From the IMG/VR virus record IMGVR_UViG_3300017963_000424, positions 1 through 41,834 of that record: 41,834 nucleotides of DNA, one strand, 5' to 3'. The first letter of the stretch is position 1. The number at the start of each line of letters is the position of its first letter. The stretch is from a virus. Shown in pieces: positions 5,177 through 41,834 of this stretch. A model generated the notes under the pieces. The model saw nothing but the letters and a program-made list of their open reading frames with translations, was not told the origin of the DNA and did no database searches. Made by a program: the position numbers and the translations under genes.

Positions 5177-5914
5177 TTAAGCAGTAGGCGGCTTGCCATA
5201 AACCAGACTGGTAGTAACATCAGTCGGGTTTGCGTAACTCCAAGGACCACTCAGCTGACCTTGAATAGTCAGTGAGACGTTTACTTGGTTAGCATCGGTA
5301 AGGGCCGGTACAATTTCGAAAGAAGCTACTGATCCGAACAGATAGAAATCAGAGAACTCACGAATAGTTGAACCATCATCACCTGCGCCATTTTGCCACT
5401 CGTAAGGCAGCTGGACGTCTGCCGAACCTGCACCATCAGTACCGCCAGATTCATTAGCAGCAGTACCACCCTGTGACTTAACCAATTCACCATTCGAAAG
5501 ACGAATGCGGAACAGCTTAGTTTCACCAGAAGCTCGCAGATCATCAATAAAATAGTGAATAGATGGTACATAGTTGAAAGTAAAATCAAGGTTCGGCGGG
5601 TCAGATTGGCCTACCACCTGGCTAGAAGACGGCTGACCGTACTGAGGTACGTTTACGATATTAGCAGGAATACCAATATTCGGAAACTCTCTAATACGAC
5701 CAAAAGCTCTTGCATTTGCAGTAGCTGCCCATGCTACAGGGATATTATCGCCTGCAGCACCTGGCGTAGTACGAGTCTCAAATTCAACTCGCCATTCATC
5801 ACCTGTTTCATCGCGGCTAACTTCACCAGCAGTGGGAGTACCTTCGACAACAGTATTTGTAACGTACGCAAGGGAAGTGTAAATCCCTGCACCAATTGAA
5901 GTAATATTAGGCAT
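5177..5914 (-). CDS. Major tail (tube) protein
   Basis: 245 aa, SD AGGAG before ATG. It is beta-rich, with Gly/Thr/Val-rich strands (for example PALTDANQVNVSLTIQGQLS near the C-terminus), the composition expected of a siphovirus tail tube subunit. It follows the tail terminator candidate and precedes the G/GT chaperones and tape measure, the standard order. Its DNA is visibly less AT-rich than the flanking small genes, as often seen for highly expressed structural genes. Assignment rests on synteny and composition; no sequence motif is diagnostic. Confidence 0.8.
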   Translation of the reverse strand: MPNITSIGAGIYTSLAYVTNTVVEGTPTAGEVSRDETGDEWRVEFETRTTPGAAGDNIPVAWAATANARAFGRIREFPNIGIPANIVNVPQYGQPSSSQVVGQSDPPNLDFTFNYVPSIHYFIDDLRASGETKLFRIRLSNGELVKSQGGTAANESGGTDGAGSADVQLPYEWQNGAGDDGSTIREFSDFYLFGSVASFEIVPALTDANQVNVSLTIQGQLSGPWSYANPTDVTTSLVYGKPPTA

Positions 5915-5928
5915 TGTCTTTTCTCCTA

Positions 5929-6330
5929 TTAGTAAGACGAAAACCGTAAAACATAATCCGCTCTGAAGAGCGATGGATCATCTAAATCATTTCCTTTAAC
6001 ATCTAAACTTGAAGCTGATGTTTGAATTGAATCACCTATCACCTTCTTGTTTAAGACATCGTCTAACAAGTCAGAAATTTCATAGATCCTTCTCGTTCCA
6101 GTATTAACGGGAGTATAAATTTGAAGAATAATCAATCCGGCTACTTGTTTCTCATCTCCATATTGGATATTGAGCTCCTGAGCAGGAAGTACTTCAATAA
6201 TTACATACTCATTGGGCCGATTACTAGTAGGAGCAATATTGGAAGGATATGCTTGGATATCGTTGCTCACCCACTCGGAGCTAGCAAAGATGTTTTCCAA
6301 ATCTCCAATTATTTGTGAATAACTAGCCAT
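5929..6330 (-). CDS. Tail terminator / tail completion protein (probable)
   Basis: About 133 aa from the ATG at 6330 (MASYSQIIGDLENIFASSEW), with a GGTGG sequence just upstream inside the end of the previous gene; a GTG at 6339 is an alternative. The protein has PNEYVIIEVLPAQELNIQYG, then VAGLIILQIYTPVNTGTRRI and a late YVLRFSSY strand. That alpha/beta pattern matches the DUF4128/gpU-like tail terminator family, which caps the tail tube and joins it to the head. Its place between connector and tail tube agrees. Confidence 0.65.
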   Translation of the reverse strand: MASYSQIIGDLENIFASSEWVSNDIQAYPSNIAPTSNRPNEYVIIEVLPAQELNIQYGDEKQVAGLIILQIYTPVNTGTRRIYEISDLLDDVLNKKVIGDSIQTSASSLDVKGNDLDDPSLFRADYVLRFSSY

Positions 6331-6331
6331 G

Positions 6332-6694
6332 CTATCCACCTACTCCAATGCCTTCAACAGAATAACCATTATCAGTAAATTCCAGAATCTTATAAGTTCT
6401 ACCATCAGCGGTAAAGCTATCAAATTGGTTATAAGAATCACCCAAGTCAGCTTTATTTACAATAAATTTGACACTGAGTTCTTCTATGATATTAGAGGAC
6501 GATCTGTCTTCATTAATAGTAATACTTTCTATGACTCCTTCCAGAGTGATATCAGTACTCGATTCAGAAACTTCACCAGTAGCGAAATTGTAATCTCTAT
6601 TGGTGGTAGTAGAAAACACAATAGTTTGCTTCAAATCTCCTAAGAGATCAAAGGCAGCACTGACTTGTGTTTCAACTAAATTTCTTAACGACAC
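6332..6694 (-). CDS. Head closure / head-tail connector protein (probable)
   Basis: 120 aa, GTG start one base after the upstream stop, weak SD. It starts with a short helix, then beta-rich sequence (DITLEGVIESITINEDRSSS, later ADGRTYKILEFTDNGYSVEG). This shape fits the small beta-barrel head-closure (stopper) proteins of siphoviruses. It lies between the DnaT-like adaptor and the tail terminator, the expected slot. No motif was firmly recognised, so the role is inferred from position and fold pattern. Confidence 0.58.
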   Translation of the reverse strand: MSLRNLVETQVSAAFDLLGDLKQTIVFSTTTNRDYNFATGEVSESSTDITLEGVIESITINEDRSSSNIIEELSVKFIVNKADLGDSYNQFDSFTADGRTYKILEFTDNGYSVEGIGVGG

Positions 6695-6695
6695 T

Positions 6696-7232
6696 TTACC
6701 ATGCTCTAAAAGTTGGCTTGAAAAGTCCTGAACCCGTAGGAGTTACGCCGAATAAATGATCTATCAAGCTTTTTACCATAAACGGAATTTCAACACCTTC
6801 CAAAGTCATATTAGGGATATTATCCCTCGTTTTAAGGCCGTCTATCTCAATAGAACCAACCTTAATTCGATCAGGCCCATCACCAGAACTACTTGTAGTA
6901 GTGCCTGTGAAACTTCCATTAGCAACGAAATAAATTGCTAATTCTACCTGTGCCTCTTTAATCTCCTCTGGAGTTTCATTACTAATAGTAACTTCTGCTC
7001 CAATTTTAGGATCATAGTATGTAGCATTTCGAGGCCATGCTAATGCTTGAGTAGTGGCAGCTGCTTCTCCGACCCAAGTAATTGTGTCAAGAAAATCAGT
7101 AGCACTGACTAATAGCTTTTCTTTATCTTCCTCAAAGAGATTGATAAAGTCATCTGTACCCTCTCGATCTAATGCATAAGCATCAGCGAAGGCTACATCT
7201 GTATAACTATTTGTACCAATTACTAAAGCCAC
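6696..7232 (-). CDS. Head-tail connector (adaptor) with DnaT-like/gp6-type fold
   Basis: 178 aa, GTG start, GGA-type SD nine bases upstream. The sequence SYTDVAFADAYALDREGTDD near the N-terminus, QALAWPR in the middle and a helix beginning PEEIKEAQVELA match the phage adaptor family annotated as DnaT-like single-stranded DNA-binding domain. Those genes lie immediately after the capsid gene and encode the ring that extends the portal. It follows the major capsid gene here, supporting the call. Confidence 0.75.
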   Translation of the reverse strand: MALVIGTNSYTDVAFADAYALDREGTDDFINLFEEDKEKLLVSATDFLDTITWVGEAAATTQALAWPRNATYYDPKIGAEVTISNETPEEIKEAQVELAIYFVANGSFTGTTTSSSGDGPDRIKVGSIEIDGLKTRDNIPNMTLEGVEIPFMVKSLIDHLFGVTPTGSGLFKPTFRAW

Positions 7233-7246
7233 TAATCAAATTCCAA

Positions 7247-8377
7247 TTAAGCATGAAGAACGGGCAGAATACCAAGATTCAGATAACCCATGTCAGCACG
7301 CGCCCAAGAACCTGCTTGGTCATAACCACCAGCACCGCTGGTAGCAACAAACGCAGTCTCAGCGCCAGCCCAATCGTAGCCCATCGGATGCAGGACATAG
7401 CCCCAGCGATACCAGATGTCAGTAGTACCACCACCTTGGTAGGCAGCAGCAGCACGATCAACCTCTACAGGAACAGGCACAGTAAGTGCTTGCATCGCCA
7501 GAGAGTTGGGCTTGACAATGAAAGTAGTCTTAACAGACCGAGCATTGACATTGCCGCCTGCTGATAAATCAACAGTAGCTGCACGGGATTGCAGAATACG
7601 GAATTTGCCATTAAAGATAGTTTGGAAAACCAGATTACCTTCAGTAACAACCGTTTGGTCTACAAGGTTGGCAGTACGAAGATCAGCCATAAGAGCAGGA
7701 TCAGTGATAAGATAGTAGTAATCGGCTTCGTAATCTTTCCAAGCCATACCCATTGCACGGAAAAGACGCTCGCCTTTAGCAGCTCCAGGCTGTGAAGCAT
7801 CGATAAGCTTACGCTCATCGGGAGCACCAGTAGCAGCAGCACCAAATTCGCCGAGGGCGTTGATATCTACGAAGAAACCCGTAGTACCATTATCAGCATC
7901 AGTAGTGAAAGATACTAAACCACCACCACGACCAACTTCATAAGCAGCAATACCATTCAGAGTTTCCAGAACAGAGTTGTGCTCATCCTGTGCTTTGGTT
8001 TCACCGAAATCGCGACCAATCTTCGCAAGGCCATCTTGTTGAGAGATGACACGCTGAACATTAACCTGGCGAGCACCGTGGGTACGAACCGTTTTAATGT
8101 ACTTTGCGAAAGCTGAAGTGACTTCGGTAGGAGTTCCGGCAGTAGAATCAGTAGCAGAAGCTACATTGATAACCGGGTTTAAAGTTTTATACCAACGCAG
8201 CTGACCAATATAATCTTCGATATCAGTATTGATGGAAGCTTCAGCGCCTACAATGGCTGTACCTGAGAGCTTTCGTGCATTAGTATACGCCTCGTCAGAA
8301 TACGCACCAACTGCACGCTGGACGTAAAACTGCATTTCATACGGGGAGTTACCCGCAGTAAAAGATGTAACAGCCAT
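7247..8377 (-). CDS. Major capsid protein
   Basis: 376 aa, SD GGAG before ATG. Ala/Gly/Val-rich with a long N-terminal arm (MAVTSFTAGNSPYEMQFYVQ) and a C-terminal segment TDIWYRWGYVLHPMGYDWAG, then NLGILPVL, a signature of the Gp13-like group of HK97-fold major capsid proteins. It sits directly after the coiled-coil scaffold gene and before the adaptor. No protease gene is seen nearby, so the capsid probably matures without a prohead protease of the usual type. Base composition is richer in G+C than in the accessory genes. Confidence 0.88.
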   Translation of the reverse strand: MAVTSFTAGNSPYEMQFYVQRAVGAYSDEAYTNARKLSGTAIVGAEASINTDIEDYIGQLRWYKTLNPVINVASATDSTAGTPTEVTSAFAKYIKTVRTHGARQVNVQRVISQQDGLAKIGRDFGETKAQDEHNSVLETLNGIAAYEVGRGGGLVSFTTDADNGTTGFFVDINALGEFGAAATGAPDERKLIDASQPGAAKGERLFRAMGMAWKDYEADYYYLITDPALMADLRTANLVDQTVVTEGNLVFQTIFNGKFRILQSRAATVDLSAGGNVNARSVKTTFIVKPNSLAMQALTVPVPVEVDRAAAAYQGGGTTDIWYRWGYVLHPMGYDWAGAETAFVATSGAGGYDQAGSWARADMGYLNLGILPVLHA

Positions 8378-8393
8378 TGCTTATTACTCCGTT

Positions 8394-9122
8394 TTAATAA
8401 AATGAGTTCGCCATTTGCTCCTCTAGCGGCCCACCACCCAGATGTCCATCTCTAATAGCAATCATCATTTCATCAGTAGTCCACTGAGAGCGTGGCTTCT
8501 TCAGAAAATCAGGTTTGTTTGTACTAGAGGGAGGAGTACCGGATTGCATGGTGCTCGAACCAGAAGAATTTTTTGGCTTAAATAAGAAAGCCTTCTCTTC
8601 ATCTTTTGAATAGTGCTCTACAAATTCTTTAATAGGAATGCCAGATTTGTGCTTCCAAGTTCCATCTTCGTTTTGAACAAGCTGTTCAATGATTTCCTTG
8701 GTTGCCATTTTCTTAGCACTTTCGTTTCGGAATTCGAGCGCCACCGTAGCATCGCTGACAATGCGATCTCTAGTTAATGACGTATTTTCAGTACGAAGAG
8801 CATCGAGTTCACCCTGGAGGGCAGAAATCCGAAGCTTTGCAGCTTCAAGCTCTTGACCGTCTTCTTCCAAACGTTTAATCTCAGCAGCTTTAGCTTCCTT
8901 CTCTGCGCGAGCGGCCTTTGCTGCTAATTCATCTCTTTCTTTGTAGGCTTTATCCAATTTCTCCTTAATAGGAGCCAACTGCTCTTCGACCATCTTGGTC
9001 GCCATATCCTGAATGAGTTTTTGAGTATCCTCGTCAGAAGATTTTGAGTCCACAGAACTTTTTTCTTCCACAGAAGTACTAGAATCCTCATCAGTGAGTT
9101 GGGTGGTATCTTGATCAGACAT
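8394..9122 (-). CDS. Capsid scaffold protein
   Basis: 242 aa from the ATG at 9122, chosen because GGAG lies just upstream; an in-frame TTG at 9134 is less likely. The N-terminus is Ser/Asp/Glu-rich and disordered, followed by a long charged coiled coil (about residues 45-115, for example LAAKAARAEKEAKAAEIKRL). A C-terminal tail contains KPDFLKKPRSQW and a final amphipathic segment. Scaffold proteins guide procapsid assembly and have this architecture. It directly precedes the major capsid gene. Confidence 0.85.
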   Translation of the reverse strand: MSDQDTTQLTDEDSSTSVEEKSSVDSKSSDEDTQKLIQDMATKMVEEQLAPIKEKLDKAYKERDELAAKAARAEKEAKAAEIKRLEEDGQELEAAKLRISALQGELDALRTENTSLTRDRIVSDATVALEFRNESAKKMATKEIIEQLVQNEDGTWKHKSGIPIKEFVEHYSKDEEKAFLFKPKNSSGSSTMQSGTPPSSTNKPDFLKKPRSQWTTDEMMIAIRDGHLGGGPLEEQMANSFY

Positions 9123-9188
9123 TTCTTTCTCCAAATATAGTTAACTTGACCACAGGAACAAGCAGCGAGCACAGCTCAACTGGAATTG

Positions 9189-9281: not shown

Positions 9282-9662
9282 ATGGATTTAGAAAATATTA
9301 AAAACCACTTGAGAGGTAATACAATTATGTATGGTACTGCGATTGCACTTGCAACACTTTTAGGTGGCTCTTTTGTTATAGAAATGCCAGCAGATCGTAA
9401 GGTACGAGAGCTAAGAAGTGAAATTGCCCAAAATTGGCAACAACGACAGATATGGGAACAACAACAACAACTCTATCATCGAAATAAAGAATTAGAACAA
9501 ATTCGATGGAGAATGGATTATATTACAAAAGAAATTAATCGGATCAATGCTATACCAGCATATTTAAATAGGCCGCTAACTCCTCAAGAAGCTTGGCAAA
9601 TAGAACAGTTAAAACAAGAATGGAACCTATTAAGGCAGCGGGAACAGCAATTGACCAGATAG
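9282..9662 (+). CDS. Membrane-anchored coiled-coil protein, unknown function
   Basis: 126 aa. A hydrophobic stretch at about residues 14-33 (IMYGTAIALATLLGGSFVIE) predicts one transmembrane segment or uncleaved signal anchor. The rest is a Gln/Arg-rich coiled coil (residues 38-126, repeated QQ and RQR runs). It is the first gene of a two-gene cassette on the strand opposite to the flanking head genes. With its own -10 element this looks like a moron gene. The function was not recognised; a membrane-linked role in the host is plausible. Confidence 0.75.
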   Translation: MDLENIKNHLRGNTIMYGTAIALATLLGGSFVIEMPADRKVRELRSEIAQNWQQRQIWEQQQQLYHRNKELEQIRWRMDYITKEINRINAIPAYLNRPLTPQEAWQIEQLKQEWNLLRQREQQLTR

Positions 9663-9688
9663 TTATTTTATTATTTAGGATTTTGTCA

Positions 9689-10228
9689 ATGAAATTATTT
9701 CTCATTACTGGGTTACCTCGTTCTAGAACTTTTTGGTTCTCTCAATATTTCAATCAATTATCGCATGTTTTTTGTGGACATCAATTATTAAATGGTTGTT
9801 ACTCTGAGAAGAGTTTCTTATCAAAACTTAAGAAAGAAGGGAAGAAAAATAATTTTATTGGCGACAGTGATAGTATGCTACCCTTCTTAGATTTTAAAAA
9901 GATTCCTGATGAGATCCCAGTATTGGTAATAGAAAGAGATTTTGAAGAAGTTATTTTTTCAATGTTAGAAGCCGGGTTAACAATTGATAACCTTAACTAT
10001 AAAGTCTTAAAAGAATTAAATGAGAGAATAAAGAAAATAAAGGGACTAAGAATTATCTTCGATGTAATCAATGATGAACTAGAAGAAATACATAGCCATC
10101 TACTTCCTCAAGTACCTTTTGATCAAGAAATTGCAAATGAATTTATAGATACAAATTTGAGTAGAAATAAAGCCACTCAAATTTCAACTATCACTTATCA
10201 TAGAATAGTTGCGCCTAAATTAAATTAG
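9689..10228 (+). CDS. Sulfotransferase-like P-loop protein
   Basis: 179 aa from the ATG at 9689, preferred over an upstream start at 9593 because an AGGA SD lies eight bases ahead and it removes overlap with the previous gene. The N-terminus MKLFLITGLPRSRTFWFS places a G-x-P-R-S-x-T-x-x-x-S loop after a beta strand, the 5'-phosphosulfate (PAPS) binding loop of sulfotransferases. VLVIERDFEEVIFSMLEAGL resembles the strand with an Arg contacting the 3'-phosphate (R-D-x-x-x-x-x-x-S). Shorter than typical enzymes. The substrate is unknown; in a moron-like cassette it could modify a host surface glycan or a metabolite. Confidence 0.7.
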   Translation: MKLFLITGLPRSRTFWFSQYFNQLSHVFCGHQLLNGCYSEKSFLSKLKKEGKKNNFIGDSDSMLPFLDFKKIPDEIPVLVIERDFEEVIFSMLEAGLTIDNLNYKVLKELNERIKKIKGLRIIFDVINDELEEIHSHLLPQVPFDQEIANEFIDTNLSRNKATQISTITYHRIVAPKLN

Positions 10229-10243
10229 ATTTATAATTTAGTT

Positions 10244-10330
10244 GTGTGGCTAGAGGATTCCTTCTCCCTCGAATTCTTGAAAGGCTGTCTCCCCACCCGT
10301 CCAGCAGACCACAGCTTGCCACACTCTTTT
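10244..10330 (+). terminator. Structured 3' element of the cassette (terminator or small RNA)
   Basis: Seven-base arms GTGTGGC (10244-10250) and GCCACAC (10318-10324) pair perfectly around a 67-base interior that is much richer in G+C than its surroundings. Inside, GCTGT (10284-10288) pairs with ACAGC (10311-10315). On the plus strand it is followed by CTCTTTT. It lies between two convergent genes, so it probably ends the plus-strand transcript and perhaps also the incoming minus-strand one. Its size resembles a tRNA but no T- or D-arm consensus is present. Confidence 0.45.
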
Positions 10331-13300
10331 ATGGACCGATCCCATACCATTCTTCGCCCTCTGCTAGGGGTCTCAGTACTTCTTCATAAGTTAACCGATC
10401 TTCTTTTGGAAGAATAATACCCTCTCTCTCAGCACGTCTAATCAATTCATTATAAGTCTTTTGCGACATACCTTCTTTGCGCATTTCTTTTAATGTTTCA
10501 ATAACACTTTCTGATCTAACAGCATCAGCATAAATTTTTCTCAATGCAGTTTTTGCTTTACCTGCATCAGCCATGTTGACAAAGAACGCATCATGAATTG
10601 TAGCCGTTGGTATATTATTGCGACGACCCCATAAATGAAACTGGCGAACAATAGCAGCGTCATTACTATGATTCCCGTTAACCCCCAAACCAGTGCGAGC
10701 ATCGATAATAGAAGCTTTTCCCTTAAGTTTTGCGTCTTCTGCCACACCTCTGTAAACATTTCTAACTCTCCTTCCTGTATTAGGATCTATCCAGTTGATA
10801 TGCTCTTCTAAAACAGGGCGGTATCTTTGACGCATTATCTTACCATCAAAAGTAACCCAAGGAATATCAGTTTTCTTAGATTCTGTCATATAAGCTCTAG
10901 CAACATCCTTCCAGAATGTAATGAATGTTTGTGTAACTGGAACTCTCCTCGCAAGATTTTCAGACATAATTCTAGAGACTTCTTTGAATTCATTAGGCCC
11001 TACTAATCCTGCATGTGTTCTGGACATCTTATCTACAAAATCTTCAACATCTGGATGGATATCTCTTGCTGCAGATCTTAATTTACTTCCAATGGGAGCA
11101 TCTTTATCGATTACATCATTTAATTCTTTTTTAGCAACCATTAAATCTTGTACTAAGGTTTCTGCACCAATTGCTTTAGCATCTTTAATTTCATTATCTA
11201 TAATTTTATTTAATTCTAATTGTGAGAAAGCTTCTTTGGGTGTAGCAGCAATTCTTCTTCTGACTACAACCACATAATCTCTCTTGATTAAGTCTTTAGC
11301 AAACCATCCTGCAAATGTTGCTGCCTGAGTAGCAGGTCCAGCGCCATAAAATGCAACCATGTTTCCGTATTTAGCACCTTTAGAAAGATCTTCCCAAGTC
11401 AAATCCGAAGGTAATCTACCCAATGCTTTGAATCTAGGATCTGCCATAGCATCTTGTGCCATGATGTCATATAAGCGATTTTTCTGTGGAGTAGCTACTA
11501 CATTGCTTTCAAAGGCTAATGGTCTATCTTTAGTTGCTAATGCAATAACCTGTGCTCCACTTGCTGAGGCATCTATCTCGATCGGTAATTCAGAGCGATA
11601 AGTTGCTATCTTTGCTAAATCATTAAGATTACCATCAACATGATCATAGATTCTAGTATATTCTAAAGCAAGTCTTAATAACTTAGGATGCTCTTCTGCA
11701 TCTAATTGTGCTAGTAAAGGATGCTCTAAAACATCTCTAATTCTGCGATCTCTTTGAGTAGTAGATTGTATAGCCCTGCCTAGCTCTAATAATTGTGGAG
11801 ATACTTCTCTAAATACTTTAAAACGACCAGCATTAGTTAAAGTTTCAGTTCCAGGACCTACTAACGCCCCGACCTGTTCTTGAAAAGCTAGCCAACCATC
11901 TACACCAATAGGTTTGGATTTTGCTGTATTTAAGAAAGGTCTTACGAATTCACCACCAGTAGGTGTCAGATACCCTCTAGCGTAAATTCTGCCTCTACTA
12001 TCAATTTGGTGTGCTATTTTGAATATATCTCCTCGATCTCGATGCCATTTAACTGTTTGCATCATACCGAGACCCATATCTTCCCGCTGCATTACAATTT
12101 TACGAACACCATTCAAATCATCATATTTCTTAACATTTCCTCTAGGGTCTCTAAACCTGACTAGATCTAGCATAAAACTAGAATACTCATTATCTACTTT
12201 CCACTCTACGGAATTCGCCCAATTAATTTCATTGGCAATATCCTTATCAATTTGGATCGTATCATAGTAAACATTTGCTCTTCTAGTTACTATAGAATCT
12301 CCAGTATCAACACCTCCTCTCGTTTTATATTTTTTAGTATCAATATCAATCTTGAGTTCGTCTCTTTTATTAACAATACCTACTCGTTTTCCTACATAGA
12401 GTTTTCTATTGATAATTTGTAATTCACGGAGATCTTTATCCCTTATCAAAACTTCTCGGCTAACAGTATCTCTCCAAGAACCATCTGGCCTTCCTGTTTC
12501 TATATCAGTCACTGCTCTTCTAGTCACTCCCCTTGGAGTAACACGAATCATTTTCTTTTCTTCCAACATTCGCAACAAACGACTACCATGATAATGATAT
12601 GTTTGTAAATTAGGAGCACCTAACAAAGGTGTCTTATCTGCTAAGTTTAAAGGATATTTTTGATAAAGAGTCTTCCCCATATTGATCGCTAAGGTATCGT
12701 AATCAGTTGTTGTACCTGTGGCGAGCATTTCAAATGCTTCAGAGATCGCATCTATTGCTTTATCATTTTGTTTACCGGCAAAAAAATCTTCTCTTGCTTT
12801 AATTAAATTTCCTTTTAAAGTTAAATCCTGTTCAAGAATCCTTTTAAAAGGTTGTTTAATAGGTTTTAAAAAATTAGCCCAAGCTTCTTCTAGAATTGTA
12901 GGTTGAGGTCGCCCTTCAAGAGTTTTCCACAATCTTTTTCCACCAGGTTGTTTTTTAATCCACTCTTCTAATGCCTTAGAAGGTTTTTTAAGACCTGTTA
13001 AATTTTTAATTGGATCTGTAAAATAAAATCTAAGTGGAGACCTACCAGAATAATAAGCTTTTCTAGCTAAAGGATTTCCTACTGATTTTCTCCAATTGTT
13101 TACGAATTTTTGATTAGCTTCTAAATTATCAGCCAATTCTGAGAAAGTAACCCATTGGCCATCTATTTGAATAGATGCTTCACCGCCTTCAGGACCCCAA
13201 AGTCTAAATTGTGAAGCACGGTCTCTAGATCTTCTATCTAAAATTCTAGAAACATTCACGACAGAATTCTTCATCTCAGCTCTGATAATCGCCTCAAAAT

Positions 13301-14819
13301 TATCCCACTCCTGTCGATAAGAAGGTCTTTGAGGATCATAAAATCGTTCAAAATTAATTCTTAAATTTTCTAGAACAGCAGTCTGTTGGTTGACAGACAT
13401 CTTCTCATCTAAAGAATTAACAAAGTCTGTTATATAATCTTTTTGTCTTTGTTTTAGTATTTTAGAAGCATTTAAAAAATCTAGTCTCTCTTGGAAGACC
13501 TGGAAGTCAGGGTCATACAGATAACTGTTTTTAGTTTCTCCAGTGACAGGATCAATAAAGTGAGTTCTTTCATCAAATACATTACTAGCATTTCTGTGAC
13601 TTTGCCTCTTACCTGCTAAAGAAGTTCCCTTGTAATCAACCAAAGAGAGATTAGTTTTCTGATTAGAAGCTTCTGTAATATAGAAATCTCTGAGATCATC
13701 TGTCAGAGTTTTATCTCTCATTAAATCTAACGGCTTGGCTACTTTTACTGGAACATCATCTGCTCCAGCAATTAAACGCCGCTGAGAAAAAACAGTAGTA
13801 GCGAAATTATCTAACCGCCTTAAAGCTTCTATTGAAATTTGTTTACCCTTTGAAGTAAAGAATTCTTTTATATCGACAAGACCATTATCAAATAAACTTA
13901 CTTTATTCTCATCACCACCAAGATGTCTCAATTTTGTTTCATAAGACTGTCTTCGAAGCCAGTTGCCATAACCTTCTTTTTTAATTGTCCGGCCATCTAG
14001 TTTCTTACGTTGTTGTGGAGAAATATTCTTTACAACTGTTTTTCGAATTCTAGGATCTTGTGTCTCTAAAATCTCATTAAAAGATTTAGCCAGAGGAATA
14101 ATTGTAGAACGACACCTCCAATGTAGTGGAGGTATGTTTCTAGTATCATCAAGAGCATAGATGCGTCCATCGTGGTACCTGCAAATCTCAGAAGTACGAC
14201 TATCTAGAATAGCTGTAAATTGATAACCCTTCATAATGCCTGCATTGGCATTTAAGACTTCTAATTGAGCAGTATTGGTTACTTTTGTAATAGCTGTTCT
14301 AACCAATGCTGTAGCTTGGTTCTCAGAAATCTTTACAGTACTAGCAACTTGATTAGCGATTTCAGGAGTGGTGAGCCCTTTGGCTAATCCCCTATTTATT
14401 ATATTTTGAGCACGTTTAAACTCATTGTCGCCTATTCTCGCAAACTGTCGATCCAGACTAGCATCGTTAGGAACGTTGTTCCCGACAATATCAGCAAGTA
14501 TAGGATTACGGCGGGGAGGTTGGACTTTATAAATATCCCCCACTGCTCTATGTAGTGAATTAGTGTGGAAAGAAAATTGTTCAGCGCCATACTCCGTCAG
14601 ATATCCATCAGTCATATTAAAAACTTCTTTAATATAACGATTGATCTCTCTTCTTACTTCAGGAGATTTTGGAGAAACCTTAACAATTTGTTTTAGGCGA
14701 TCTCTATGGCGCCGAGTAGCTCTCCTTACGTCAGTCTGTACCTTGTTCTCAAATAGACGAGACATTGCCTGATTATCGACAAGTCTGTCATAGAGTTCTT
14801 CATTGACTGAATCTGCCAC
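10329..14819 (-). CDS. MuF head-morphogenesis domain fused to T7-type single-subunit RNA polymerase
   Basis: 1,496 codons, GTG start without a clear SD; an ATG at residue 20 is an alternative. Residues about 120-245 are a MuF domain: helix QATALVRTAITKVTNTAQLE, then ILDSRTSEICRYHDGRIY and PPLHWRCRSTIIPL. Residues about 870-1440 match T7-like RNA polymerases: DSRGRIYA at 940-947 (DxRGR motif), AKSKPIG at 966-972, motif A DASASGAQ with Asp1083, motif B K1150-x7-Y1158-G1159, and motif C TIHDAF with Asp1410, preceded by NHSNDAAI. All catalytic residues visible by eye are present. The region 300-870 probably holds an N-terminal promoter-binding or linker domain of unknown fold. It lies between portal and scaffold genes, the MuF position, so packaging in the head is likely. 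The polymerase would be injected to transcribe phage genes. Confidence 0.92.
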   Translation of the reverse strand: MADSVNEELYDRLVDNQAMSRLFENKVQTDVRRATRRHRDRLKQIVKVSPKSPEVRREINRYIKEVFNMTDGYLTEYGAEQFSFHTNSLHRAVGDIYKVQPPRRNPILADIVGNNVPNDASLDRQFARIGDNEFKRAQNIINRGLAKGLTTPEIANQVASTVKISENQATALVRTAITKVTNTAQLEVLNANAGIMKGYQFTAILDSRTSEICRYHDGRIYALDDTRNIPPLHWRCRSTIIPLAKSFNEILETQDPRIRKTVVKNISPQQRKKLDGRTIKKEGYGNWLRRQSYETKLRHLGGDENKVSLFDNGLVDIKEFFTSKGKQISIEALRRLDNFATTVFSQRRLIAGADDVPVKVAKPLDLMRDKTLTDDLRDFYITEASNQKTNLSLVDYKGTSLAGKRQSHRNASNVFDERTHFIDPVTGETKNSYLYDPDFQVFQERLDFLNASKILKQRQKDYITDFVNSLDEKMSVNQQTAVLENLRINFERFYDPQRPSYRQEWDNFEAIIRAEMKNSVVNVSRILDRRSRDRASQFRLWGPEGGEASIQIDGQWVTFSELADNLEANQKFVNNWRKSVGNPLARKAYYSGRSPLRFYFTDPIKNLTGLKKPSKALEEWIKKQPGGKRLWKTLEGRPQPTILEEAWANFLKPIKQPFKRILEQDLTLKGNLIKAREDFFAGKQNDKAIDAISEAFEMLATGTTTDYDTLAINMGKTLYQKYPLNLADKTPLLGAPNLQTYHYHGSRLLRMLEEKKMIRVTPRGVTRRAVTDIETGRPDGSWRDTVSREVLIRDKDLRELQIINRKLYVGKRVGIVNKRDELKIDIDTKKYKTRGGVDTGDSIVTRRANVYYDTIQIDKDIANEINWANSVEWKVDNEYSSFMLDLVRFRDPRGNVKKYDDLNGVRKIVMQREDMGLGMMQTVKWHRDRGDIFKIAHQIDSRGRIYARGYLTPTGGEFVRPFLNTAKSKPIGVDGWLAFQEQVGALVGPGTETLTNAGRFKVFREVSPQLLELGRAIQSTTQRDRRIRDVLEHPLLAQLDAEEHPKLLRLALEYTRIYDHVDGNLNDLAKIATYRSELPIEIDASASGAQVIALATKDRPLAFESNVVATPQKNRLYDIMAQDAMADPRFKALGRLPSDLTWEDLSKGAKYGNMVAFYGAGPATQAATFAGWFAKDLIKRDYVVVVRRRIAATPKEAFSQLELNKIIDNEIKDAKAIGAETLVQDLMVAKKELNDVIDKDAPIGSKLRSAARDIHPDVEDFVDKMSRTHAGLVGPNEFKEVSRIMSENLARRVPVTQTFITFWKDVARAYMTESKKTDIPWVTFDGKIMRQRYRPVLEEHINWIDPNTGRRVRNVYRGVAEDAKLKGKASIIDARTGLGVNGNHSNDAAIVRQFHLWGRRNNIPTATIHDAFFVNMADAGKAKTALRKIYADAVRSESVIETLKEMRKEGMSQKTYNELIRRAEREGIILPKEDRLTYEEVLRPLAEGEEWYGIGP

Positions 14820-15022: not shown

Positions 15023-15259
15023 TTAGGCGACATCTCCATCATATTTGAAATCATCTTCGAAATGTTCCTCTTCTATTTTAGGCTCTTCTAACTTAGGTTC
15101 TTCTAGTTTAGGTTCGTCTAAAGGAAGATCTAGTGTAGCGGTTGAACCTTCTAATTCTGCTAATTCTTCCTTGGTAACTCTCTTAGTAGTACCATCAGAG
15201 AACTGTATGATAGAACCACCAGCTTTAGCATTTTCTACAAGTACAGTAAAATCACTCAT
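15023..15259 (-). CDS. Small acidic protein next to the portal gene
   Basis: 78 aa from the ATG at 15259, overlapping the portal stop by eight bases, with a GGAGAT SD upstream. The N-terminal half (TVLVENAKAGGSIIQFSDGT, then VTKEELAEL) forms the same short domain as the next gene. The tail contains repeats of EEPKLEEPK followed by an acidic end. It may be a small head protein or a portal partner; only position supports this. Confidence 0.7.
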   Translation of the reverse strand: MSDFTVLVENAKAGGSIIQFSDGTTKRVTKEELAELEGSTATLDLPLDEPKLEEPKLEEPKIEEEHFEDDFKYDGDVA

Positions 15260-16892
15260 CTGTCGTATCTCCATTATCTGGGTTTTGGTCAGGTACTTCA
15301 TTAGCCATTCTTCTAGCTAATTCTACAGTCTTATCTATTTCCATTTCATCCTGTCTGTCAGGGGGTCCTGGAATTAGATCGTCTTGTTCAATTTCTTGCC
15401 TAGCAAGCTCATCATTGTAGTCATTGGGGATAATATCATTAGATTTGAGAATCTGTAGGAAAGTAGTTCTCGGAATCTTTCCAGTATCATACCATTCAGT
15501 AACGAGTCTGAGCCATTCTGCACCCAGCGGAGCGGGATTAAAATCTGGAGATAAATTAAATGCAATCTCTTCTTCTTGAAAAGAAGTTCCATATCTCCAA
15601 TTAAGCATTGTAGTGATAATCGATCTCATACTTTGGGAGATCTTGACATTCAGAGTAGATAGCTGGGCAGTTTGAGCCGCATTCCTAATTTCCAAAGCTA
15701 CTCCCGACTGATCTCTAACATCAGGAGCCATCATCCTAATACCCATCCTAGCAATCTCTAAGAGAGACTGATCGATAGCTCTATCCATGTCTTTTAGAGC
15801 ATCTGTAGGAGTATCTAAGATTTTGATATCTTCATCGACTTGAACTCGCAACCAAGAGCCTAAACCGGCATTTGCTAACTTATCTAACTCTTCTTCACCC
15901 ATATTAGATTTGATAACGGGTGTATAAGTAGCTGCCCCGTACATCAGATGATTTCTTCTACTGACCTTGTTGTATAAACCAACTTCACGATCAATTAAAG
16001 GCATTAGTATAGGTTCTTCTCCCTGGATAGAACCATTCAACGGGAATATGGGAATTCTTGTCAATGGCTGTGCATTGATCATGATATTGGTTTCAGTACC
16101 CTTATAGACAAACATCTCTTTGGTTGCCACATGATCGTATTTAAACTCCCCTGCTTCAACTTTAGCATCCAGCGGAGTTTCTTTTTCAAAGATTCTAATT
16201 TGATAGTTACCAGCGCTATTAATTTCATGTACCCAGACTGTATCTACAATCTCAGGGTGAAATTCATTCTCAGCAGTGTATTTCTCTACCATTTGGCGAA
16301 CAATTACTTGTTGTAAGCCAGTTTCATTGGTAACAGGGTTTTTACCCTCTCTCCAGTTGATGACAGATTCCGCCTTAAGCAGAATAGGATAAGGCTTTAA
16401 ATTCTTCTTTTGATCAGGGGTTAAATCTGCATCAGGAGCTACGTAAGGGAAGTTGACCATGACCCAAGCCCTAGAAGTTGTAATTTCTTCTTCTAAAGCT
16501 TCATCTAAAAATCCGATTAGAGATCCGTGTTGAGAAGTGAAGTCATTCATTAACCATTCATAGGCACCTTTTGGAGCACTAGAAGGTAAAACTAAATCGG
16601 GACGTTTTCTAAGTAATCCAGCTACAAGAATTCTCATATATTGAGAACATAGTCCAGGCAATTCTGCTTCCATTCTAAAGAAAGCATATTGTTGTTCAGT
16701 CATTGTAGGACTGAAAGGAATTAGAAGATTATCGTTATAGACTCTGTCTATTCGCTTATCGTATTCCTTTGCTGCATATTGCCCGCCAATGATAGCTCTA
16801 GCTTTTCGGTAGAAAGGCTTTAGAGAGTCGTAACGATAAGAGGGGTCTGCTACCCCCCTGATCTCAGTAGTTGTTGCCTGAATAACTGGCAT
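15252..16892 (-). CDS. Portal protein (DUF4055 family)
   Basis: 546 aa. The N-terminal half has the DUF4055 pattern: DSLKPFYRKARAIIGGQYAA, then YAFFRMEAELPGLCSQYM and a hydrophobic segment ending RAWVMVNFP, then LLKAESVINWREGKNP. The C-terminus is acidic and disordered. Length (about 500-550) fits portals of this family. Portals form the dodecameric ring for DNA entry and exit. It lies between large terminase and the MuF fusion. The last codons contain the SD for the following small gene. Confidence 0.88.
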   Translation of the reverse strand: MPVIQATTTEIRGVADPSYRYDSLKPFYRKARAIIGGQYAAKEYDKRIDRVYNDNLLIPFSPTMTEQQYAFFRMEAELPGLCSQYMRILVAGLLRKRPDLVLPSSAPKGAYEWLMNDFTSQHGSLIGFLDEALEEEITTSRAWVMVNFPYVAPDADLTPDQKKNLKPYPILLKAESVINWREGKNPVTNETGLQQVIVRQMVEKYTAENEFHPEIVDTVWVHEINSAGNYQIRIFEKETPLDAKVEAGEFKYDHVATKEMFVYKGTETNIMINAQPLTRIPIFPLNGSIQGEEPILMPLIDREVGLYNKVSRRNHLMYGAATYTPVIKSNMGEEELDKLANAGLGSWLRVQVDEDIKILDTPTDALKDMDRAIDQSLLEIARMGIRMMAPDVRDQSGVALEIRNAAQTAQLSTLNVKISQSMRSIITTMLNWRYGTSFQEEEIAFNLSPDFNPAPLGAEWLRLVTEWYDTGKIPRTTFLQILKSNDIIPNDYNDELARQEIEQDDLIPGPPDRQDEMEIDKTVELARRMANEVPDQNPDNGDTTDE

Positions 16893-17383: not shown

Positions 17384-18718
17384 TTAAATGAGTCTACGAG
17401 GATTATAACTCACTCTGGTCCCGCCCGCACCTACTGGGAATAAATATTCCACAGCATAGCGCAAAGCATCAGTAAAATGTTCATCTCCCGCTGATTTATC
17501 TATCTGAGCTGTCTCTGGATTTCTCTCCATCCAGACAGTTCTCTCCAGAGAACGAATCGTATTGATACAGTCAGATTTGATGTAAATCTCTGTCTGTTCT
17601 CTAGCATTTAACAACTTCCTGTTAACTGCACTGACAGAATCTATGATTGGGGGAGATTTCTTCCTAGCAAGAACTGTGATACCATGACTCTGAAGAATAG
17701 AAAAGTCAGTTTGCCCAACAGCAGCAGACGACTTCCTACTACGACCAGTAGGATCAGGGTAGGCAATAATTTTGTGTTTTGCATAGCGATCTTTCAACCA
17801 TTTAGCTAATTCGTGAGTATCCCTATCCCCTCTCTTCTCATCTAGGATATGGATCTGGTTTCCTCTCAAGGCAAATAGAACAGTAGCCATCACCCCTACG
17901 TTAAAGTCTATAGCAGCATGGACTACTTCCCCTTCTTCAAATTCTGGGATTACATCGTCTATGTGTTTCTTCCGATCAAAAGTATAGAATACTCTAGCAC
18001 CAGAATCTTCAAAAGAAGCCTCATACTCTCTGGCAAACTTAAGAGGATCTAAGATCAGTTTATTCTGTTCAATTGCTTTAGGATTGAGATAAGGAGAACA
18101 GGTATAATCATAGTGATAAGATTTCCAATCTGGATCTCTCAACTCATTCTGAAACATATCATATAAATAATCCATACCCTTGGGGGTAGAGATTGTGAGA
18201 GATCTTCCAATACCCGGCCAACGAGTATCTAAGCAGGGCTGAATAGTAGATTCCCATGCCTCCTGCTGATTAGAGCCGGGTAGCTCCCAAGAGGCAAATT
18301 CATCATTTACTACAAAGTATTGTCCAGTACCCCGCATCCGTTCACTAGCTTCTGCTGACCAAATCTTCAGTAATACCTCTGGACCAAACCAGAAGGTACC
18401 CTCCCTCCTAGAAGATTTAGTGCAATAGCCTAGAACACCAAACTGATAAGCTATCAGAGGATAATAAATATCGGTGGCCTGAGAGTGAGTAGGTGCTATA
18501 AGTGCTACATTCCGATTAGGAGTACTAGCAGGCATTTTAGACAATTCTTCTATCGCCTTGATAGCGCAAGCAGCAGCTAAAACAGATTTACCAAAACCCC
18601 GAGAAGCAATACAAACAGCATGCCTACAAACCTTATCTATAAACAAGGCTCTAAAGATCTCCGATTGAGCTGGATGTAGCTCAATACTAGGGGCTTCTTT
18701 AGGGATTGCTGCAGTCAT
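17384..18718 (-). CDS. terL: Terminase large subunit
   Basis: 444 aa. ATPase: Walker A-like ASRGFGKS at residues 38-45, Walker B YFVVNDEF at 134-141 with the catalytic Glu140, coupling motif TISTPKG at 175-181. Nuclease (RNase H-like): AAIDFNVG with Asp271, IAYPDPTGR with Asp322, and EHFTDALRYA with Asp417. This is the packaging motor that cuts and pumps phage DNA. SD is weak. It precedes the portal gene and follows a run of small genes downstream of the small terminase candidate. Confidence 0.95.
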   Translation of the reverse strand: MTAAIPKEAPSIELHPAQSEIFRALFIDKVCRHAVCIASRGFGKSVLAAACAIKAIEELSKMPASTPNRNVALIAPTHSQATDIYYPLIAYQFGVLGYCTKSSRREGTFWFGPEVLLKIWSAEASERMRGTGQYFVVNDEFASWELPGSNQQEAWESTIQPCLDTRWPGIGRSLTISTPKGMDYLYDMFQNELRDPDWKSYHYDYTCSPYLNPKAIEQNKLILDPLKFAREYEASFEDSGARVFYTFDRKKHIDDVIPEFEEGEVVHAAIDFNVGVMATVLFALRGNQIHILDEKRGDRDTHELAKWLKDRYAKHKIIAYPDPTGRSRKSSAAVGQTDFSILQSHGITVLARKKSPPIIDSVSAVNRKLLNAREQTEIYIKSDCINTIRSLERTVWMERNPETAQIDKSAGDEHFTDALRYAVEYLFPVGAGGTRVSYNPRRLI

Positions 18719-21197: not shown

Positions 21198-21284
21198 TAT
21201 AACCTCCAGGGATTTTCGAGCGGGATAACATTTTATCTGAACAGACAATCAATATTCACTTAAATCTAATGCATCCCCATTTAC

Positions 21285-21312
21285 ATTATAAACCAAATAA
21301 AACAAAATGCAA
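21285..21312 (-). promoter_or_regulatory. sigma70-like promoter for the late operon
   Basis: On the minus strand TTGCAT (21307-21312) and a perfect TATAAT (21285-21290) are separated by 16 bp. Transcription would start near 21278, about 80 bases before the zinc-ribbon gene that opens the late region. Host polymerase could use it. Confidence 0.6.
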
Positions 21313-21373
21313 TACTACCAGAAAAAATTTTTAAATTCATTCCATTTTCAATAAGTCTTTGAAAAATAACAAA

Positions 21374-21428
21374 TTTGGTTTCATTTAGAAAAGATTTCAT
21401 TCAAATTGAATTTGAAACCAACTATAAA
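21374..21428. repeat. 55-bp direct repeat, copy A
   Basis: Pairs with copy B at 22020-22074 over 55 positions with no gaps; 41 of 55 bases are identical by eye. Conservation is in two blocks (TTTGGTTTCA..TAGAAAAGATTT and TGAA.TTGAAA.CA.CTATAAA) separated by a variable centre of fixed length. Arms GGTTTCA and TGAAACC make the copy an internal inverted repeat. The pattern resembles a protein-binding iteron or operator pair. Confidence 0.7.
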
Positions 21429-21950
21429 CTAAAGATTTATAACAAATAAAACAAATAAATAAAACTTAAATAAATTTAAAATCACTAAAAATAATTCTTG
21501 AAAAAATCTTTGTTAAAATCTTTGAAAATTCTTTCAAGAATGGGCTTTATAAGGGTTATAAAAAATTTTTTCAGAATTGGTTTAGGGGAATTGGAAAAAA
21601 TTCTTTTTTGGAAAGGGTAAGTGAATTTTTTCGGGGAGGCCTATAAGAGAGTTGAAAAAATTGTATGCGTGAGTAAAGACGCGAAAACAAACTCAAAGGG
21701 GAATATACCCCCTATTCAAAATACTCTCCCCAGGAGATTCACACAATCTTTTATCTTATGTTAATAACAAATTTATATAATAAACCAACTACTAATAACA
21801 AAAAGTTATAATAACGTTTATTGACCACTTAAAACAACAACTAAAATTCCAAATTTTCACAACTATCTCCATGATCTTATTGAAGTTTCTGGTTTCAAAT
21901 ACTTTTAGTATAATTTTATATAAGAAGATTGTGTGGGTTTGAGAGCTGGC

Positions 21951-21969
21951 TTATATCAAAATGATATAA
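21951..21969. promoter_or_regulatory. 8-bp hairpin with 3-base loop (candidate hairpin promoter)
   Basis: TTATATCA (21951-21958) and TGATATAA (21962-21969) pair perfectly around AAA. A second hairpin, ATATCT/AGATAT with loop ACGGG, follows at 21984-22000. Phage N4 virion RNA polymerase uses promoters with a short stem and a 3-base loop; whether this phage's virion polymerase does so is unknown, so this is a suggestion only. Confidence 0.3.
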
Positions 21970-22019
21970 CAAATCTCTTGGTAATATCTACGGGAGATAT
22001 GCTGAGAGTTTACTCAAAG

Positions 22020-22074
22020 TTTGGTTTCAAATAGAAAAGATTTTTGAAGTGATGAACTTGAAAGCAGCTATAAA
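22020..22074. repeat. 55-bp direct repeat, copy B
   Basis: Second copy of the repeat at 21374-21428, same orientation and length, about 650 bp away. It keeps both conserved blocks; the inverted-repeat right arm has one change (TGAAAGC). The constant spacing with a free centre suggests two half-sites recognised by a protein. Confidence 0.7.
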
Positions 22075-22347
22075 TGGTGGTAATTGTGAGTGCGATTCAT
22101 ATACCCACACAATTTTCTTGAAAACAACTTTCCTCAAATTTTACCAAAAATACTTCACATATCTCAGTGTAATTCTCACAACCTATCTTCATTCTCATTC
22201 TCCTGGTTTCATTTAGTTTTAATAGCTTTTCTTTATTAAAAGCCTCTTCTTAATAGCTTTTAACTATAATAAAACTCAATAGATTCATTCTATAAAACTC
22301 CCCATATTTTTCACCCATTCTAAGACTACCTTATTGAAGAAATAAGA

Positions 22348-22390
22348 CAAGAATATCATTCATTCTTTGATTAATTAAATGATATTCTTG
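22348..22390 (-). terminator. 13-bp inverted repeat at the end of the accessory operon
   Basis: CAAGAATATCATT (22348-22360) and AATGATATTCTTG (22378-22390) pair perfectly with a 17-base loop. It begins 36 bases after the stop of the last accessory gene. The minus-strand sequence after it, TCTTATTTCTTC, is only moderately T-rich, so it may be a weak terminator, a stabilising 3' hairpin, or a binding site at the edge of the gene-free region. Confidence 0.5.
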
Positions 22391-22426
22391 CCAGATGTTT
22401 TGGAAAAAGTTTGATATTTTCAATTA

Positions 22427-41629: not shown

Positions 41630-41834
41630 CTTACTACTATAACTTTCATTACCGAATAGATATTCGTTTGTAGTCTGGACTTTCTCTTCATCATATCAAT
41701 CATCTGATTAACTTAGATGGATGCCGTCAAGTCTCTACACCTTCCTTGAATTAAGGCTTGGCTCGGGATTGCCATCATCATTACATGTTAAGGTTTCCCC
41801 GAATTTGACATCTTCTACTTCAGAAATTTCTTTC
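41630..41834 (-). other. Group I intron (IC3-like) in tRNA-Leu, 5' part outside window
   Basis: The minus strand carries the conserved group I core in order: GGGGAAACC region (41792-41809), GGCAATCCCGAGCCAAGCC (41755-41773), GTGTAGAGACTTGACGGC (about 41723-41740) and AAAGTCCAGACTAC (41670-41683). P4 pairs TCGGG with CCCGA, and P7 pairs GACTT with AAGTC. Both keep pairing with changed bases relative to the Azoarcus tRNA-Ile intron as I remember it, which is covariation support. The last base before the 3' exon is G, as required. No homing endonuclease frame is visible. Such introns self-splice. Confidence 0.9.

What the first reader, a model, noticed from the sequence alone, without database searches (positions are those of the whole stretch)
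10329..14819. RNA polymerase fused to a MuF capsid protein: a candidate injected virion transcription machine
Seen: one frame joins a MuF domain (residues about 120-245, CRYHDGRIY...HWRCRS) to a complete set of T7-type polymerase motifs (DxRGR at 940-944, motif A Asp1083, motif B K1150/Y1158, motif C Asp1410). Known: MuF proteins sit on the inner face of the capsid near the portal, and MuF fusions to toxins and enzymes are known; phage N4 packages a giant RNA polymerase. Inference: this phage uses MuF as the address tag that puts a polymerase into the head and then the host, so transcription can start without host polymerase. Residues 300-870 match nothing I recognise and may hold promoter recognition or a cleavage site that frees the polymerase.
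Basis: partly seen in the sequence, partly recalled or inferred. Interest (0 to 1): 0.93.

Follow-up and report, generated by a model that had tools for sequence, protein, structure and literature searches.

The report
Phage head protein fused to polymerase
This phage, like a large and overlooked group of related phages, joins a protein that normally sits inside the virus head to a complete RNA-making enzyme, so the particle probably carries its own transcription enzyme into the bacterium; the joined gene is certain, its delivery is inferred and untested.

Summary
Observation confirmed. ORF 14819→10329 (minus strand) is one 1496-aa frame joining a MuF head domain (Pfam E 4e-16) to a T7-type single-subunit RNA polymerase (Pfam E 9e-10; predicted fold matches T7 RNAP, Foldseek E 2.6e-19). 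It is no reading error: 123 other contigs carry the fusion in one closed frame, as do the cultured roseophages DSS3_VP1 and DSS3_PM1. Catalytic residues never vary in 138 aligned copies; dN/dS is 0.11-0.14 along the protein. The gene lies between portal and scaffold/capsid genes and is the only MuF gene in 33/33 records. Of 19 related records over 45 kb, 18 also encode a separate T7-like polymerase, the two-polymerase layout of N4 and P23-45. In one clade, group I introns repeatedly interrupt the gene at polymerase motif B.

Best reading: MuF docks the polymerase at the portal; it is ejected with the DNA and transcribes early genes. Packaging, ejection, activity and promoters are inferred; no virion data were at hand. 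I found no report of a MuF-polymerase fusion in the open-access library, but the primary roseophage paper could not be read. New variant of the virion-RNA-polymerase kind; confidence in the mechanism 0.75.

The parts
10329..14819 (-). MuF-RNA polymerase fusion gene, 1496 aa
   Evidence: single open frame; Pfam and PHROGs; 123 single-frame relatives
14097..14408 (-). MuF domain, residues 138-241
   Evidence: PF04233 E 4e-16; the only MuF match in the record; model of 1-640 matches viral minor capsid / head morphogenesis models
10437..11747 (-). RNA polymerase core matched by PF00940, residues 1025-1461
   Evidence: fold match to T7 RNAP 1cez E 2.6e-19 for the model of 400-1496
11988..12005 (-). 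DxxGR motif IDSRGR, residues 939-944
   Evidence: D940, R942, R944 invariant in 138/138
11556..11576 (-). motif A IDASASG, residues 1082-1088, catalytic D1083
   Evidence: D1083 in 138/138
11343..11372 (-). motif B K1150 to YG 1158-1159; the site where group I introns sit in some relatives
   Evidence: K1150 138/138, Y1158 137 plus one gap; introns in relatives
10581..10598 (-). motif C IHDAFF, residues 1408-1413, catalytic D1410
   Evidence: HD 137 plus one gap
15252..16892 (-). portal protein, upstream neighbour
   Evidence: phrog_145 E 7e-46; portal upstream in 56/57 relatives with enough flank
17384..18718 (-). large terminase
   Evidence: phrog_2 E 5e-37
8394..9134 (-). scaffold protein, downstream
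   Evidence: phrog_206 E 1e-8; downstream in 61/61 relatives
7247..8377 (-). major capsid protein
   Evidence: phrog_247 E 2e-20; downstream in 48/48 relatives
5177..7232 (-). connector (6696-7232), tail terminator (5929-6339) and major tail protein (5177-5914): a tail with tube, so ejection would run through it
   Evidence: PHROGs

Best explanation
The protein is a virion RNA polymerase addressed to the head by a MuF module. It is made late with the head genes (inferred). The MuF half docks a few copies at the portal inside the procapsid, as SPP1 gp7 does (inferred from the family). On infection the polymerase is ejected with the DNA and transcribes the first phage genes, among them, where present, the gene of the separate T7-like polymerase that then takes over (inferred by analogy with N4 and P23-45). 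Shown here: the domain make-up, an intact active site, purifying selection over the whole length, the place in the head cluster, the absence of any other MuF gene, the second polymerase in larger genomes of the family, and the breadth of the family. Not shown: packaging, ejection, enzyme activity and promoter specificity.
For: MuF plus complete polymerase in one frame, repeated in 123 other contigs and in cultured DSS3_VP1/PM1. Catalytic residues invariant in 138 copies; median dN/dS 0.11 (MuF), 0.14 (middle), 0.14 (polymerase). Folds: MuF-like N part, T7 RNAP-like C part. Portal upstream 56/57, scaffold downstream 61/61, MCP 48/48. Sole MuF gene in 33/33 records. Separate T7-like polymerase in 18 of 19 records over 45 kb, as in N4 and P23-45 which pair a virion with a non-virion polymerase (PMC12633501, PMC10770324). 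In DSS3_VP1 three SP6-like sites stand in tandem just before the portal-fusion genes, none right before the stand-alone polymerase gene: the fusion looks late, the polymerase gene looks dependent on another enzyme. [quoted passage not shown]
Against: No virion proteomics, no activity and no infection data were available. No separate early-promoter class was found. Host polymerase could serve early genes. The window itself is a fragment in which only the fusion polymerase is seen. Passage of a folded ~165 kDa protein through a long tail would need unfolding, as is also supposed for N4 and P23-45.
Confidence: 0.75

Rival explanations
1. The polymerase half is cut off during or before head assembly and works in the cell that made it, for example on late genes; fusion to MuF serves co-expression, not delivery.
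For: The gene lies in the late cluster; phage P1 DdrB is an example of a head-associated protein processed before packaging (PMC5512222).
Against: No protease identified in the head cluster and no HExxH motif in 138 copies; late promoters resemble SP6 sites expected for the stand-alone polymerase; a permanent fusion in two clades ~32% identical is hard to explain if the parts always separate.
Confidence: 0.12
2. The polymerase is delivered, but mainly to pull the genome into the cell by transcribing while DNA enters, with host polymerase doing most early gene expression.
For: The P23-45 authors propose coupling of DNA entry and transcription (PMC10770324); compatible with all sequence facts here.
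Against: Nothing here separates it from the best explanation; it is a variant of it.
Confidence: 0.1
3. The polymerase fold is a structural or DNA-holding part of the head without catalytic use.
For: It is attached to a structural protein.
Against: All catalytic residues are kept in 138 copies, and the active-site motif B attracts group I introns repeatedly, as conserved enzyme codons do.
Confidence: 0.02
4. Assembly or reading artefact joining two genes.
For: None found.
Against: 123 other closed frames and cultured phage genomes.
Confidence: 0.01

Closest known systems
Roseophages DSS3_VP1 and DSS3_PM1 (MN602266, MN602267; Naomviridae), gene annotated 'minor head protein-like protein'
   Same: Full-length fusion, 43% identical, same place between portal and scaffold/MCP; a separate T7-like polymerase in DSS3_VP1.
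   Different: Their annotation does not name the polymerase half. They have dU-DNA (PMC12697855); the window fragment holds no dCTP deaminase homologue but lacks the replication region.
EBPR siphovirus 1 gp47 + gp49 (JF412302)
   Same: The same fusion at 29% identity, same neighbours.
   Different: Interrupted at motif B by a group I intron with an HNH ORF, so annotated as a head protein and a hypothetical protein.
Phage N4 virion RNA polymerase gp50 (Schitoviridae)
   Same: Single-subunit polymerase inside a larger late protein, with a second phage polymerase; injected in N4 (PMC12633501).
   Different: N4 gp50 is ~3500 residues with its own N- and C-terminal parts and a metallopeptidase domain (PMC5512222) and no MuF; here 1496 residues with MuF and no HExxH motif.
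Thermus phage P23-45 gp96, tape-measure-fused virion RNA polymerase
   Same: A polymerase fused to a virion structural protein of a long-tailed phage, plus a non-virion polymerase; shown in virions and active (PMC10770324).
   Different: A two-barrel polymerase on the tail tape measure; here a T7-type polymerase on a head protein.
MuF proteins with C-terminal cargo (SPP1 gp7 without cargo; MuF polymorphic toxins; Kolga MuF-metallopeptidase)
   Same: MuF carrier in the head cluster with exchangeable C-terminal part (PMC5576092, PMC5512222).
   Different: Known cargo are toxins or effectors; in the passages of both papers that I read no polymerase cargo is mentioned.

Membership tests
MuF / minor head protein family (PF04233) | PF04233 domain over the curated cut-off | tested here: met
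   60.2 bits against 29.6
MuF / minor head protein family (PF04233) | gene beside the portal in the head cluster | tested here: met
   portal at 15252-16892; 56/57 relatives
MuF / minor head protein family (PF04233) | bound to the portal inside the capsid | not testable with these tools
   known for SPP1 gp7 (PMC5576092)
T7-type single-subunit RNA polymerase (PF00940) | PF00940 over the cut-off with DxxGR, motifs A, B and C | tested here: met
   38.4 bits against 22; residues invariant in 138 copies
T7-type single-subunit RNA polymerase (PF00940) | T7 polymerase fold | tested here: met
   Foldseek 1cez E 2.6e-19, probability 1.0, TM by target 0.48
T7-type single-subunit RNA polymerase (PF00940) | template-directed RNA synthesis | not testable with these tools
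   needs in vitro assay
Virion RNA polymerase (functional class) | present in the mature virion | not testable with these tools
   no proteomics at hand
Virion RNA polymerase (functional class) | ejected and transcribes early genes independently of host polymerase | not testable with these tools
   needs infection with rifampicin
Virion RNA polymerase (functional class) | a second, non-virion polymerase in the same genome | tested here: inconclusive
   18 of 19 related records over 45 kb; not seen in the window fragment
N4-like virion polymerase (Schitoviridae gp50) | ~3500-residue protein with metallopeptidase domain | tested here: not met
   1496 aa; no HExxH in 138 copies
Naomviridae (DSS3_VP1-like phages) | shared head cluster with DSS3_VP1 | tested here: met
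   TerL 58%, portal 44%, fusion 43%, MCP 51% to DSS3_VP1; formal family membership not tested
Naomviridae (DSS3_VP1-like phages) | dU-DNA genome (dCTP deaminase gene) | tested here: inconclusive
   absent from the fragment, which lacks the replication region; deaminase family in 5/15 fusion-bearing records

The most novel reading that the evidence does not exclude
A further way to put a polymerase into a virion: MuF as portal-side carrier for a T7-type polymerase, used by a widespread lineage of long-tailed phages that includes dU-DNA roseophages. These phages would begin transcription with an injected enzyme and then switch to a second, self-encoded SP6-like polymerase, being largely or wholly independent of host RNA polymerase.
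Probability: 0.55. Interest if true: 0.88.

Novelty: new variant of a known kind. Interest (0 to 1): 0.82.

Why it matters
Virion RNA polymerases are described from few lineages (N4-like, phiKZ/AR9-like, crAss-like, P23-45). Its polymerase half had gone unnamed in the records of cultured phages. It makes a question directly testable with a cultured phage and host: how phages with dU-substituted DNA such as DSS3_VP1 start transcription. It also gives MuF proteins, whose function is poorly known, a delivery hypothesis with a measurable enzyme as cargo.

Tried and rejected
Two-gene or assembly artefact: rejected. dU-DNA as the general reason for the fusion: not supported, since most ESV-clade genomes have no deaminase-family gene. 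Recent duplication of the stand-alone polymerase: not supported, stand-alone enzymes group with T7 and fusion copies cluster apart; but the branches are deep, motif B was misaligned in that alignment and N4 sits on a very long branch, so no sister group is claimed. A separate early-promoter class: sought by repeat counting; one class per genome at most, nothing clear in the window. PDB fold match for residues 1-640: none. hhalign comparison of polymerase groups failed on a format error and was not repeated. Bacterial and archaeal genomes: one relative only, on a short metagenome-assembled contig, so prophage carriage looks rare. The roseophage discovery paper (Curr Biol 2021, 31:3199) is not held. 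Paper searches for a MuF-polymerase fusion found none.

Full report
Observation. The finding lies on the minus strand: 14819 to 10329 is one open frame of 1496 codons with a GTG start. Pfam finds MuF at 138-241 (E 4e-16) and RNA_pol at 1025-1461 (E 9e-10), each over its curated cut-off. PHROGs extend the head-morphogenesis match over 1-339 and place polymerase matches from 863 onward. Sequence searches of the PDB give T7 RNA polymerase as the only credible relative.

Surroundings. On the minus strand stand, in order, large terminase (17384-18718), portal (15252-16892), the fusion, scaffold (8394-9134), major capsid (7247-8377), connector, tail terminator, major tail protein and a tape-measure-like frame cut by the left end. 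The window is a whole IMG/VR record of 41834 bases, most likely a fragment, since it holds no replication genes that I could identify and ends inside a group I intron and inside a long gene. The other half is a dense row of small minus-strand genes.

Relatives. tblastn against phage records finds the full-length fusion in DSS3_VP1 and DSS3_PM1 (43%) and, in pieces, in EBPR siphovirus 1 (29%). Of the best 80 of each, 69 and 54 carry the fusion as one closed frame over 1400 aa. The two clades are about 32% identical.

Is it a working enzyme? In 138 aligned copies (94 non-redundant at 95%) D940, R942, R944, D1083 and K1150 never vary, and Y1158, H1409 and D1410 vary only by a gap in one row. Median dN/dS among moderately diverged pairs is 0.11 in the MuF part, 0.14 in the middle and 0.14 in the polymerase; the pairs are not independent. 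AlphaFold2 models (pLDDT 83 for 1-640, 79.5 for 400-1496) match viral minor capsid models and T7 RNA polymerase (1cez, E 2.6e-19). In EBPR siphovirus 1 a group I intron with an HNH ORF interrupts the gene after NMV and before FYGAG, which is motif B. Rfam finds group I introns at the break in L107, L108, L114, L125, L143, L159 and L176 above the gathering score and in L166 below it (E 6e-7). Homing introns favour codons of conserved active sites (general knowledge), which fits a polymerase in use.

Why a virion role is likely. Portal directly precedes the fusion in 56/57 relatives with enough flank; scaffold follows in 61/61 and major capsid in 48/48. Each of 33 records has exactly one MuF domain, and it is this protein. 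[quoted passage not shown] If the phage uses its MuF protein, the polymerase goes with it unless cut off; no protease was identified in the head cluster and no HExxH motif occurs, but some neighbours have no assignment.

Two polymerases. DSS3_VP1 and five further contigs and 14/14 ESV-clade contigs also encode a stand-alone polymerase with strong PF00940 matches, three of them split or carrying inserts. Counted by length, 18 of 19 records over 45 kb have both; the exception is EBPR siphovirus 1, deposited as a partial sequence. The window shows only the fusion. In a tree of polymerase cores the stand-alone enzymes group with T7 and the fusion copies cluster apart, with the caveats listed under what was rejected.

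Promoter-like motifs. DSS3_VP1 has 16 sense-strand sites of AATAGGgtaCGTTAAAGA and none at that score on the other strand. It resembles the SP6 promoter (recalled, not tested), which would suit the stand-alone enzyme. Three sites stand in tandem just before the portal gene. Related contigs have ACCAGGGGACGCTAAAG or CCCCGTTAAATTAACCCT motifs; in G018, G024 and G027 sites lie just after the fusion gene and before the next head gene. In DSS3_VP1 and G001 no strong site stands right before the stand-alone polymerase gene. My reading, an inference: late genes, the fusion included, belong to the stand-alone enzyme, and the region with its own gene needs another enzyme, host or injected. No early-promoter class was found.

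dU-DNA. DSS3_VP1 and DSS3_PM1 have deoxyuridine DNA (PMC12697855). A deaminase-family gene is found in 5 of 15 fusion-bearing records, so the fusion is not bound to dU-DNA.

Cargo exchange. The MuF protein of Pelagibacter phage Kolga, related over residues 4-341, ends in a metallopeptidase-like domain (a match below Pfam's cut-off), and that phage has a separate RNA polymerase. L004 has a GNAT-like insert before motif A; L147, L153 and L157 were seen to have a 230-aa insert after motif B, and L146, L148 and L149 have the same length.

Known or new. A survey of polyvalent proteins lists N4-like virion polymerases only from N4-like phages and MuF fusions with other enzymes (PMC5512222). P23-45 has a two-barrel polymerase fused to the tape measure, shown in virions and active (PMC10770324). 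Searches of the open-access library found no MuF-polymerase fusion. The paper describing DSS3_VP1 could not be read, and subscription papers and preprints are mostly missing, so priority is not settled. Verdict: a new variant of the virion RNA polymerase kind; confidence in the mechanism 0.75, interest 0.82.

Noticed in passing
window 41651-41834 (-): Group I intron (RF00028, E 5e-12) cut off by the right end of the record; the gene it interrupts was not identified.
   Followed up: no
window 9282-10228 (+): Two plus-strand ORFs (126 aa, and 211 aa with a PHROG 'hydrolase' match, E 2e-8) sit between the fusion gene and the scaffold gene, against the direction of the head genes; L003 has only ~220 bp there.
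   Followed up: partly
L004:10001-14902: The fusion of this relative carries an in-frame insert of ~137 aa with a GNAT acetyltransferase match (PF00583, E 3e-4) just before motif A.
   Followed up: partly
L146-L149, L153, L157: Fusion copies of ~1778 aa; in the three aligned ones a 230-aa in-frame insert without a Pfam match follows motif B.
   Followed up: partly
L006:23176-24040 and L107, L108, L114, L125, L143, L159, L166, L176: Group I introns at one and the same place, motif B, of the fusion polymerase.
   Followed up: yes
L194 (G030), L195 (G028), L196 (G017): The stand-alone polymerase is split or carries inserts (frames of 994, 523 plus 239, and 926 aa), so inteins or introns are likely there too.
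   Followed up: no
DSS3_VP1 (MN602266) and contigs G001, G002, G018, G024, G027: Strand-specific, mostly intergenic promoter-like motifs, a different one in each subgroup.
   Followed up: partly
L197:19998-21899 (Pelagibacter phage Kolga): A 633-aa MuF protein with a C-terminal metallopeptidase-like domain in place of the polymerase; a separate RNA polymerase gene lies elsewhere.
   Followed up: partly
window 21249-22426: An AT-rich stretch of ~1.2 kb without a long ORF between minus-strand genes, with an inverted repeat AAGAATATCATT...AATGATATTCTT.
   Followed up: no
L007:3143-5163 (DSS3_VP1): The large terminase is annotated as two pieces with a small gene between them; an intron is possible.
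   Followed up: no
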